DNA from: Owenia fusiformis
Lineage: Eukaryota > Annelida > Polychaeta > Sabellida > Oweniidae
Direction of reading: 5' to 3'
NCBI GenBank assembly: GCA_903813345.2
Contig: CAIIXF020000001.1
Location: 51,105,885 to 51,169,884, forward strand
Length of the DNA stretch: 64,000 nucleotides
Shown: piece after piece, positions 58,201 through 62,898 of the stretch
Numbering within the stretch: position 1 is the first letter of the stretch
Layout: each line of letters starts with the position of its first letter
The notes under the pieces: model-generated
What the model was told of the DNA's origin: nothing
What the model saw: only the letters and a program-made list of their open reading frames with translations
Database searches by the model: none
Made by a program: the position numbers and the translations under genes

Positions 58201-61200
58201 TCTTGCTTCATATAAATATGATAAAAATAAACATTGTATCAGTTTTATTCTCTCTAGGGTTCTTTTTCAACTGAGAGCAGAACGCTTAATTTACCCATTC
58301 TAAGTAAGAAATGTCGAAATTGGTAAAAATCCAACGTTTCATAATTTTGTAAAATTTCAACTAGATGAAAAATAGTTTCAAATTAGTACAAGTCAATTTT
58401 AAATTGTGTGAAAATCAACAATTCTAATAATGGATCTCAGCTCAGTGTATTGTAATCCTATTGAAACTTCAGCAAGAAGTACATGCTACTTACTCTTCCA
58501 GAAAGTTTTGCTGAGGTCCTATAATAGACCCAGGACGGCATATTCTAAGCCAGCCTATACATTCTGCAGCAGTGAACTTATAGTGCTTCATGATATAGCA
58601 GGCTATCAGAGTACCAGTGCGTCCAAGACCAGCTGAAACACATATGAATGATACATAATATGTATGTAATACACCGACTATATATATATGTGCGCAAAAC
58701 ATACTTTATGAATATGTGCATTACTTAAGAAAATCAAATTAGATATCTATGCTTGGAAAGATATATCTTGTTACACATAAACACAGCCTCTGGGGTCTGA
58801 GGCCAAGTATGATGCTCAAAAATACTGTACATTTGTTTCAAAATAGGTGAAAATCTAGTGAAGTTGGATTATATTATTGATCAATGATCAGTTTGTGCCA
58901 TTGTTAGGCACTAACAAACTCATAACTCATGCTAATTGGTCATAACTGTGAATAAAACAGCCAAAAATTCCACTTCAACACATTCAAGTTTTCATGTAAC
59001 AAATTCTGAAACAGTTTCTTTGGGAAATGTTAAAGGTACCTTTGGCAGACTCAAAAGCTAATTCCTTAATAATTGCAAGTTAAAGTTACTTTCTGACTTA
59101 CATCTTGCTTCATCAGGCTTCAGACCTGTCCTCAAGAGATATAATGTAGTGATTGAATGTGTGAACCGACGATACATTTTTAAGCAATCCACAGAAATGA
59201 AAAACTGCGATTACTGTTGATAAAAAAACAATTAAGGAATGTACCTACCTTTACAATGCACTGCTATTCCTCCTTCTGCATGTTCGGATATTTCTAAAAA
59301 CTGCCGAACAATATTATCACTAGGGGTGCTGCCATCTATGAAGAAGAGATCTTGATGGTCGAAACCGGCGTCAGTAAACCGTCGTGCATCATACAGCTTT
59401 TTGTTTAGACGTACTATAGTTGTGACATTGTGCTTTCTGAAGTAGGGGAAGTATGCCTCAGGCGCATGGAGGGGGTAGCCTAAAATATGATAATATGTCT
59501 TGTGTGAGGATTGTAAATAATAAATATTATTTTTATCATTATCAAGTTAGTGACACATGATTCAGTAAAAATGTGATGAATATTTTAGATTTTGGAAGAA
59601 TTGTAAATAATTCCAAAGTTGATTATAAAAGAAATTGTAAAACAAAGCTATTATAGTTATAACCTGCCACGTGACAATATTTGCCTGAAAGTAGCCTATT
59701 CTAAAAGAACAGTGAATTTGAAAAAAACATGTGGTAAGTCTTAAAGAAATTCAAACGAAAAAACAACATATATTTCTGTACAAATCTATCAGTCAACGAT
59801 GTGATTGTGCATATTGGATTTATAATTTACATAGAGTCTAAGTGCGCTACCCTAAGATTTCTTCTAAATTGGTAAAAGAAATTTTAAACTTCCTTTTTGG
59901 TTAATTTTAAGTTCTCACAAGGGTCTCAACAACAGCAGGCAACATTTTACATAGTTCTAGTTGTCTTCGCCCAAATCACCTGTGCGTTTTGAGGAATTTT
60001 GCAACTGTTTCCATATTAAAACTAACAAGGCATTAACATGCAAAATGTCACCACCTAACATTTGTTACAGACACCAACCGTCAAATGCTGAATGCTGACC
60101 GCTGAATGCCGAAGACCATCCATAAAAACTTGGGAGACTCTAAAAATATGTCACCACTTTTGGTGGTGAAAAAGTGGTGACATAATAATGCTGAATTTCT
60201 TGTCAGAAAAACTAAGGACCCCAACTAAATCCTGGGGAGACCACTGAGTTATAAAGATATAAAGGTAGACAGACAAAAAATCTGCATCAAATTATTAACA
60301 TTAGGAATGGTTTCAACAGTTGTAGAAAATGATAATCTAATCAGTGAAAAATAATTTTCAAGTTAAATTCAAGTTAACCACAAATCAACTTTTGTGAGGG
60401 ATCGAAAATCAAAATAAACTTCATTTTTCTACAACTCTCAACATTTGGAGACCAACCCTAATGTTAACTGATTGTGTGTGTTGTATCAAATAAATCACCA
60501 AAAGGTATATTAGTCTATATGGTTTCACTGTACAGTATAAAGTTAAACTAGAAGAGGAAATTTGTTGGTTTTACTGTACAGTGGATGGTTTAACTAGAAG
60601 AGGAAATTGGTTGGTTTCACTGTACAGTAGATAGTTTAACTAGAAGAGGAAACAGGAAAACAAACATAAGGACACTTCTACACAAACGCATCAAGTAAAT
60701 ATGATAATGAAGTTTGTTATTTAAATAGTATAGAACTATCATATTTACAAATATATCATATCATAAATCTAAAAGCTCAACTATAAAATATTCAAAATAC
60801 TGTATATACAACTTGAAATACTGTACACTACAAAACAATAATAAGCAAACATGTGCAATTGCGCATCAACAAAACACATGCTAAATTCTAGATTCTGTTA
60901 CCATTCTCAATTTTGCTCTTTGGATGCGGTCCGCTGAATGCTAGAAATTTATCGGGTACTAGCCAGTTTAAATCTCCATTTTCAACTCGCTATATGAGAG
61001 AAAAGACAACACAGTGTTATAATCAAGTTATTAATCAAGATTAATCTTATCTAAGTAAGTAATCCACAGTCCTATTGAGGCGACACCCTGTTCCATTAAA
61101 ATGAGCCAATAGGGGACTGTACATTACTATCTACTACAAACTCCATGCCCCATTGTGAAGAACATCTCCAAGTTGCAGACACTTCTCAATATACCTAGAC

Positions 61201-62898
61201 AGTTGGTGACATTCTTCACTAAATAAGCATATGGTGCTTTCTTACAACAAAGTGTATTGTATTATTCTATAGGTATTGGTCAGTACAAGAATACAATTGT
61301 TTGGTGCATGTATTGTTCAATGCAAGTCTTGTTCAGTTCATGTCATAATCTAAATGATCAATGATTTCAACTGCAATAGTACTGCTCCATTGAAATACTT
61401 TGTACTGTATTGATCTATTTAGCAGAAATTTAATACTGTAAGAAAACACCATTCATGCATACAAGACCCTTCTCCATCAGCGCATATACATTGCTACATG
61501 GCCTACCATTTTCAATTTTGCTTTTGGGATGTGGACCGCAAAATGCCAGAAATTTGTTTGGTATAAGCCAGTTGAAATCGCCATTTTCTACCCTCTGTAA
61601 AATTGTCACATATCAAATGAAATAGAATTAAACTAGCAAAATTGCCAAATCTAATAATTCGCACTGTTTATTGAAATTCGTCATTATCAATTATTCAAAA
61701 TGTGAAATTCTAGAACTGAATAAATAGGAAATAATTCTTGGAGTAAATTGAATGCAAACATCATTATAAAGTGTACTGTAGTTCTACATATAACACATAC
61801 CTCGTAATGCTCATACTCATCCACATCAAATGTGTCAAAGTTGAAGAACCCATTTATCAGAGCCTGGAAGACAAAACAAACTGAATTAACATGAAATAAA
61901 TCTTAAAATTGCAATATATTGGATAGCTTCGAATTAGCAAATACATGTATATAATACAGTAAAACCGGTATATCTGAACATCTCCCTAATCTGAATATCT
62001 CTCAATGTTATTTCTCCCCATTTTTCCAATCTGCTATAGACTTCTATGTTAAAAAAACCTCAAAATGTGAGCATCTGACATTAATGAATACTTTTGGCCA
62101 GTTCCAGTGGTGTTCTTACTGTACTAGACTGGCTTCACTGTAATTAAGATATTAAACCGAATAGCAGGGGTACATACACCCCACAGGGCTAGGCACAAAC
62201 ATTTTCTGTTTGAAAGCTTTTGTGCCTAGCCCTAAAGGGTGTGTTCGACAATATTACACCTGCTCTGAGGCCTACATTACGATTCAAACATGAAAACTCA
62301 CCAAATGTTTAGAATATATTCATTATGGTATGCCATTATGACGTCACACATTACTTGTATTACCAGGGTTATTGTTCGCAGATATAACCTGGGTGAAATA
62401 TTGACTTTGTTCACAGTTTATAGAAGGCCTGAATACAGTTCTAATACTCTATACAAATCATTGTCTACATGTGGCCAACTCCTGTCGATGACATTCATGG
62501 AACTATATTTTGTTACCGGTCCTTTCATAGCAGCAGGTAACAGGAGAACAGGTGTTTTTCATGATATCGTCTGTTATTTTTAACAATTCTTCAATACATT
62601 CCATATTCATATTATTCAATAAATCTGCCTCTTGTTTTCTACCAGGAATCCTGTTGTCAGAAATCCTATGTGGCGTGTAGTATTTGTACATCATGATAAA
62701 CCATGTCATCTCGATTCTTACCATCCATGAGATGTTTTTAGCGAAATAGAGAGATGTGATGAAGTGTGCCACTAATGCAAGTACATGTATAAACCAATGT
62801 AAACTAATAACTTAACATATGTAAAGTGTACCTTATTTAATCCATGTAGGACATCTAACAGTGTAAGGTTGTATGTACATGCTCCAAATGAGGCATCC
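52262..62898 (-). CDS. CDC14: CDC14 dual-specificity protein phosphatase, 3' part (5' exons outside window)
   Basis: CDC14 removes phosphate from CDK-type Ser/Thr-Pro sites and acts in mitotic exit, cytokinesis and cilia. Exons in transcript order: 62898-62832, 61863-61801, one of two alternative 88-nt exons (61594-61507 or 60989-60902), 59479-59249, 58632-58494, 57940-57748, 56841-56723, 56409-56209, 54500-54353, and a proposed terminal exon 52285-52262. All joints keep frame. The first two exons give [15 protein letters not shown] and [10 protein letters not shown], the end of the N-terminal A domain. Then come [20 protein letters not shown] and [15 protein letters not shown], and the catalytic P-loop HCKAGLGRTG split by an intron, followed by [20 protein letters not shown]. 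The tail ([11 protein letters not shown], then Ser/Thr-rich) is disordered, as in other animals. The last 24-nt exon is the least certain. Confidence 0.9.
52671..52829. mobile_element. MITE-like element, TGTCACCACC family, copy 4
   Basis: It starts AAGGCATGATT and ends AATGCCATCATGCCTT, with ACCACCATTTGTTACAGATG and GTGGTAGTGACATAA inside. It lies in the last CDC14 intron. Confidence 0.55.
54060..54275. repeat. Three tandem copies of an approximately 72-bp unit
   Basis: AAATTTGAAATGATACAACA...GAAATTAAAATTAAACAAAA...AATCTGGAT is repeated three times with few changes. The minus-strand ORF across it is only a by-product. Confidence 0.9.
56480..56580. mobile_element. MITE-like element, TGTCACCACC family, copy 5
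   Basis: CACATTGACATACAAAATGT then CACCACCTGCCATTTGTTACAG, ending TGTCATATAAATGACA. Lies between CDC14 exons 56409-56209 and 56841-56723. Confidence 0.5.
58012..58145. mobile_element. Short MITE, GCATATAAAATCG family, copy 2
   Basis: ATAGGGAGTTTAAGTTTGCA and its inverse TGCAAGCTTAAACTCCCTAT form the ends. The interior matches 12175-12310. It lies in a CDC14 intron. Confidence 0.7.
60027..60195. mobile_element. MITE-like element, TGTCACCACC family, copy 6
   Basis: AAGGCATTAACATGCAAAAT, GTCACCACCTAACATTTGTT, and near the end GGTGGTGAAAAAGTGGTGAC. Lies in the CDC14 intron between the alternative exons and exon 59479-59249. Confidence 0.6.
60510..60655. repeat. Three tandem copies of an approximately 57-bp unit
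   Basis: GGTTTCACTGTACAGTA...GTTTAACTAGAAGAGGAAA repeats three times with small changes, in the CDC14 intron just downstream of the second alternative exon. Confidence 0.8.
60902..60989 (-). CDS. CDC14: CDC14 alternative exon, version B (88 nt)
   Basis: Preceded by CTCATATAG and followed by GTAACA. Encodes [15 protein letters not shown] and then [14 protein letters not shown] plus one base. Same length, same phases and same encoded segment as the exon at 61507-61594. It would join equally well to exon 61863-61801 (ending EHYE) and exon 59479-59249 (starting with the rest of Gly, then YPLHAPEAY). Confidence 0.85.
61507..61594 (-). CDS. CDC14: CDC14 alternative exon, version A (88 nt)
   Basis: Preceded by TTTTACAG and followed by GTAGGC. 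Encodes [15 protein letters not shown] and then [14 protein letters not shown] plus one base. It differs from version B at about 18 of 88 bases but at only four residues (F/L, I/V, N/D, C/S). Confidence 0.85.
61957..62145. mobile_element. Pogo/Tigger-like MITE fragment
   Basis: Begins ACAGTAAAACCGGTATATCT and carries CTGAACATCTCCCTAATCTG, related in inverse to the interior of 45660-46153. The right end is degenerate. Confidence 0.4.
62178..62245. repeat. Hairpin
   Basis: AGGGCTAGGCACAAA pairs with TTTGTGCCTAGCCCT around a loop of about 25 bases. It lies in a CDC14 intron. Confidence 0.7.

What the first reader, a model, noticed from the sequence alone, without database searches (positions are those of the whole stretch)
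60902..61594. Duplicated, probably mutually exclusive CDC14 exons
Two 88-nt exons lie 517 bp apart in the same CDC14 interval. Both have acceptor and donor sites, start in phase 0 and leave one extra base. Because 88 is not a multiple of three, using both or neither would break the frame before the catalytic P-loop, so only one can be used per transcript. They differ at about 18 bases but only at four residues, so both have been under protein-level selection. The segment lies between the A domain and the start of the catalytic B domain, so the choice could tune substrate recognition or the domain interface. I do not know of a described exon pair at this place in CDC14.
Basis: partly seen in the sequence, partly recalled or inferred. 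Interest (0 to 1): 0.85.

Follow-up and report, generated by a model that had tools for sequence, protein, structure and literature searches.

The report
Duplicated alternative exon in CDC14 phosphatase
A marine-worm-like genome carries two old, interchangeable versions of one small exon in its only CDC14 cell-cycle phosphatase gene, so each message probably uses exactly one, giving two slightly different enzymes from one gene; this has not yet been seen in RNA.

Summary
The CDC14 gene (minus strand) has two 88-nt exons, A (61594-61507) and B (60989-60902), separated by a 517-nt intron. Both have AG/GT sites and the same phase. They differ at 18 bases but only 4 of 29 residues. Synonymous sites are saturated (14 of 17.5; 8 of 9 fourfold sites differ), while dN is about 0.06 (Fisher p = 4e-10). 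DNA similarity stops at the exon edges. So the duplication is old and both copies have been kept under protein-level selection. Including both exons, or neither, shifts the frame and gives early stops before the catalytic cysteine. CDC14 appears single-copy and otherwise intact.

The best reading is mutually exclusive splicing enforced by reading frame and mRNA decay, plus an unidentified regulator. It is not enforced by steric closeness, U2/U12 mismatch, or any RNA pairing detectable here. The 4 residues lie in the first strands of the catalytic domain and all also differ between human CDC14A and CDC14B, so isoform differences are probably subtle.

The genome looks like an annelid, probably Owenia fusiformis (inferred). 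I found no published CDC14 exon pair. It is a new member of a known kind. No RNA evidence or relatives could be checked.

The parts
61507..61594 (-). Exon A, 88 nt, encodes [29 protein letters not shown] plus the first base of the next Gly codon
   Evidence: 82% DNA identity to exon B over exactly 88 nt
60902..60989 (-). Exon B, 88 nt, encodes [29 protein letters not shown] plus the first base of the next Gly codon
60990..61506 (-). 517-nt intron between A and B; GT-AG, too long for steric exclusion; one TGCATG 48 nt after the A donor (expected 0.43 by shuffling, not significant)
61595..61800 (-). 206-nt intron upstream of exon A
59480..60901 (-). 1422-nt intron downstream of exon B; holds a 46-nt x 2.9 tandem repeat at 60520-60652
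61801..61863 (-). Shared upstream exon ([21 protein letters not shown]), ends in phase 0
59249..59479 (-). Shared downstream exon, 231 nt ([11 protein letters not shown]...GIAVHCK), includes the catalytic Cys; its 3' edge matches the human CDC14A exon edge implied by c.839-3 (PMC6982189)
58490..58633 (-). Next exon with the rest of the P-loop ([20 protein letters not shown]...); its 3' edge is approximate
62832..62900 (-). Earlier A-domain exon ([22 protein letters not shown]); further 5' exons lie beyond the window in L007 and L008

Best explanation
The single CDC14 gene of this animal carries an old tandem exon duplication that is spliced in a mutually exclusive way. Each productive mRNA joins the 63-nt upstream exon to either A or B, and then to the 231-nt exon with the catalytic cysteine. 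Because the exon is 88 nt, double inclusion or skipping shifts the frame, gives early stops before the catalytic cysteine, and should send the mRNA to nonsense-mediated decay. The choice itself is probably made by a tissue- or stage-specific splicing factor; this last step is inferred and the factor is unknown. The two enzymes differ at four conservative positions at the start of the catalytic domain, and probably differ subtly in stability, domain packing or activity rather than in the core pSer-Pro specificity.
For: Two equal, in-phase exons with splice sites. Frame logic tested by splicing in silico. pS = 0.80, saturated; dN = 0.06; Fisher p = 4e-10; 8 of 9 fourfold sites changed; neutral simulation 0 of 20,000. 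Similarity ends at the exon edges and the flanks do not align, so this is not a recent or assembly duplication, and there are no Ns nearby. The only other genome match is a weak P-loop hit on C5 (36% identity), so CDC14 looks single-copy, and the rest of the gene is present in order. Frame incompatibility is a common property of predicted human exon pairs: 60% of 629 clusters have exons not divisible by three (PMC5740500). Annelids and molluscs have a known, working case in coq-2 (PMC7434440).
Against: No transcript evidence was available. Nothing in the introns explains strict exclusivity: no excess of pairing (z 0.0 to 0.7), no enriched regulator motif, no distant branch point (AG-free zones of 36 and 54 nt), and both donors are U2-type. 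A-B splicing is therefore chemically possible. The residue changes are conservative, so the functional gain is not obvious.
Confidence: 0.87

Rival explanations
1. Only one copy is used; the other is a decaying or nearly silent relic.
For: Tandem duplicates are often lost, and no RNA data are in hand. Exon A's polypyrimidine tract is weak (8 of 17) and exon B's donor score is low (0.78 on an approximate human scale).
Against: Synonymous sites are saturated while only 4 conservative residues differ, and both reading frames and all four splice sites are intact. A relic of that age would have lost its frame; 41% of neutral trials at only 18 changes contain a stop.
Confidence: 0.05
2. The second copy acts mainly as a regulated off switch: double inclusion shifts the frame and lowers CDC14 level by mRNA decay, as human CDC14B does with an extra exon that carries a stop.
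For: Double inclusion gives early stops. Human CDC14B has a Matrin3-repressed exon that introduces a stop (PMC10132239).
Against: An off switch needs no conserved protein sequence in the extra exon, yet both copies are kept at the residue level.
Confidence: 0.06
3. Gene conversion or an assembly duplicate keeps the copies alike.
For: Tandem copies can exchange sequence.
Against: Conversion would homogenise synonymous sites, which are saturated here. Flanking introns share no similarity and there are no Ns nearby.
Confidence: 0.01

Closest known systems
coq-2 exons 6a/6e in helminths, annelids and molluscs (PMC7434440)
   Same: Two homologous internal exons, one per transcript, in an enzyme gene of annelids; a small region is swapped within a catalytic fold.
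   Different: Different gene. There the swap changes the product from ubiquinone to rhodoquinone and is shown by RNA and mutants. Here no RNA evidence exists and the residue changes are milder.
[quoted passage not shown]
   Same: Ancient tandem exon copy, equal phase, selection on both copies, frame incompatibility common.
   Different: CDC14 is not mentioned in the main text of either survey. In OGDH a distant branch point enforces choice; that feature is not seen here.
Vertebrate paralogues CDC14A and CDC14B
   Same: Two CDC14 versions. All four exon A/B positions also differ between the human paralogues (F180/L216, V184/I220, G186/D222, S192/C228); 13 of 28 comparable positions differ, chance P = 0.035.
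   Different: Separate genes with far more differences; the state pattern does not map one exon to one paralogue (I+C and V+S match, F/L is reversed).

Membership tests
CDC14 phosphatase | Sequence homology with catalytic HCxAGxGRTG loop and CDC14-type N-terminal domain | tested here: met
   phmmer E = 6e-90 to human CDC14A chain 9rib_A; DSPc catalytic domain over cut-off; A-domain exons found in order upstream
Mutually exclusive (tandem duplicated) exons | Neighbouring internal exons with homologous sequence, similar length, same phase and splice sites | tested here: met
   88/88 nt, 82% identity, phase 0 in and 1 out, GT-AG
Mutually exclusive (tandem duplicated) exons | Both copies kept as coding sequence | tested here: met
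   pS 0.80 against pN 0.058, Fisher p = 4e-10
Mutually exclusive (tandem duplicated) exons | Double inclusion or skipping is non-productive | tested here: met
   Frameshift and early stops in both cases
Mutually exclusive (tandem duplicated) exons | Transcripts include one and only one copy | not testable with these tools
   No RNA data can be reached
RNA-structure-controlled exon clusters (docking/selector type) | Competing intronic complementarity above background | tested here: inconclusive
   Duplex energies equal to shuffles, z 0.04 to 0.69; no comparative alignment available
Steric or U2/U12 exclusion type | Donor to branch point under about 50 nt, or mixed U2/U12 sites | tested here: not met
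   517-nt intron, candidate branch points near the 3' site, no U12 donor

The most novel reading that the evidence does not exclude
One CDC14 gene in an annelid lineage makes two stage- or tissue-restricted phosphatases by exon choice, an exon-level counterpart of the vertebrate CDC14A/CDC14B gene split, with different substrate preference or cellular role.
Probability: 0.3. Interest if true: 0.7.

Novelty: new member of a known kind. Interest (0 to 1): 0.52.

Why it matters
CDC14 specificity is described as widely conserved in eukaryotes, and in vertebrates its diversity comes from two genes and variable tails. A selected exon choice inside the catalytic domain would mean some animals tune the enzyme core itself. 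With only four residues changed and one gene, it is a clean natural experiment: two near-identical enzymes whose separate roles can be tested directly.

Tried and rejected
A possible second exon pair in the A domain (one search gave two overlapping matches to one query stretch) proved to be two consecutive, non-homologous exons and was dropped. Searches for intronic pairing and splicing-factor motifs found nothing above background; the single TGCATG after exon A is a lead only. A coq-2 positive control was started, but the clearest two-part hit turned out by inspection to be a COX10-like gene, so no positive control was completed. Structure prediction was not used because the spliced protein is not a contiguous translation of the window, which the tool requires. 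Mapping the four residues onto a solved structure at atom level was not possible; only residue numbers were transferred by alignment.

Full report
Observation. The minus strand of 58490-62900 holds consecutive exons of a CDC14 phosphatase gene. Between the exon ending at 61801 (…[10 protein letters not shown]) and the exon starting at 59479 ([11 protein letters not shown]…) there are two 88-nt exons. A is 61594-61507 ([29 protein letters not shown]) and B is 60989-60902 ([29 protein letters not shown]). Both have AG and GT edges, enter in phase 0 and leave one base. The intron between them is 517 nt.

Is it more than chance? Of 17.5 synonymous sites, 14 differ (pS 0.80, beyond Jukes-Cantor correction), and 8 of 9 fourfold sites differ. 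Of 69.5 nonsynonymous sites, 4 differ (dN 0.06). Fisher p is 4e-10. Throwing 18 changes at random on exon A gives 12 residue changes on average, never 4 or fewer in 20,000 trials, and a stop in 41%. BLAST aligns exactly the 88 exon bases and no flank. The pair is therefore old, and both members have been held by selection on the protein. This argues against a relic, an assembly duplicate, and gene conversion, which would have homogenised silent sites.

The gene. In the genome that contains the window, CDC14 matches fall at this locus only, apart from one weak P-loop hit elsewhere (C5, 36% identity). The missing A-domain exons lie upstream in order. An apparent second duplicated exon there was checked and rejected. 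Best PDB relative: human CDC14A, E = 6e-90. The downstream exon ends at the base corresponding to human c.838, and the human gene has a splice variant written c.839-3 (PMC6982189), so at least this intron position is shared with human.

Mechanism. Spliced in silico, A alone or B alone keeps the frame to the catalytic cysteine. Both together, or neither, give early stops. More exons follow, so decay of such mRNAs is expected (inference). Frame incompatibility is the commonest restriction in human exon pairs: 60% of clusters (PMC5740500). Other known devices were looked for. The intron is too long for steric exclusion. Donors GTAGGC and GTAACA are not U12-type. AG-free zones of 36 and 54 nt leave no room for distant branch points. 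Intron-intron pairing is at shuffle level. One TGCATG lies 48 nt after exon A, but 0.43 are expected, so it is only a lead. The choice is therefore assigned to unknown trans factors, with frame and decay as the filter. The exon pair and the selection on it are shown; exclusive use, decay and regulation are inferred.

What the swap could do. In human numbering the four positions are CDC14A F180, V184, G186, S192 and CDC14B L216, I220, D222, C228 (alignment; numbering set from the catalytic Cys278/Cys314, remembered). By domain limits remembered from the CDC14B structure, they sit in the first strands of the catalytic domain just after the linker helix. CDC14 makes its peptide groove at the interface of its two domains (PMC11407943). 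All four positions also differ between human CDC14A and CDC14B, where 13 of 28 comparable positions differ (P = 0.035). So these positions tolerate change, and a subtle effect is more likely than a new specificity.

Whose genome? Three exon matches over the cut-off to the annelid giant-haemoglobin linker family point to an annelid. No mollusc-haemocyanin domain was found, though that search had no positive control. Twelve contigs of 32-62 Mb, then only small ones among those sampled, and 498 Mb in total fit Owenia fusiformis (505.8 Mb, 12 chromosomes; PMC9977687). This is inference, but it means suitable public RNA-seq probably exists.

Known or new? Full-text searches for CDC14 with mutually exclusive or duplicated exons found no such case. 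The human CDC14B splicing case is a stop-bearing extra exon, not a swap (PMC10132239). The two human surveys opened do not mention CDC14 in their main text. The coq-2 exon pair in annelids and molluscs (PMC7434440) is the closest working analogue. The library lacks most subscription papers and genome annotations were not searched, so an annotated but undiscussed CDC14 pair could exist.

Verdict. The finding is real, and its interpretation is well supported at sequence level and unproven at RNA level. It is a new member of a known kind.

Noticed in passing
63091-64000: A 29-bp minisatellite of at least 31.6 copies, 95% matches, lies inside an upstream CDC14 intron and runs beyond the window.
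   Followed up: partly
60520-60652: A 46-bp repeat of 2.9 copies sits in the intron after exon B.
   Followed up: no
L008:5300-7900: Two long similar blocks beginning ATCCCATCGAACGAAGTTCGGAGGGATATAGGGAAC lie in a 5' CDC14 intron; related-looking ORF text occurs in the window near 49528-49958. Likely a dispersed repeat family.
   Followed up: no
19596-23726: A single 1376-codon open frame with near-identical repeats of about 42 residues resembling tetratricopeptide units.
   Followed up: no
60990-61506: One TGCATG (RBFOX-type) motif 48 nt downstream of the exon A donor; not above chance.
   Followed up: partly
24761-25904: Open frames that look like remnants of a reverse transcriptase of a retroelement.
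   Followed up: no
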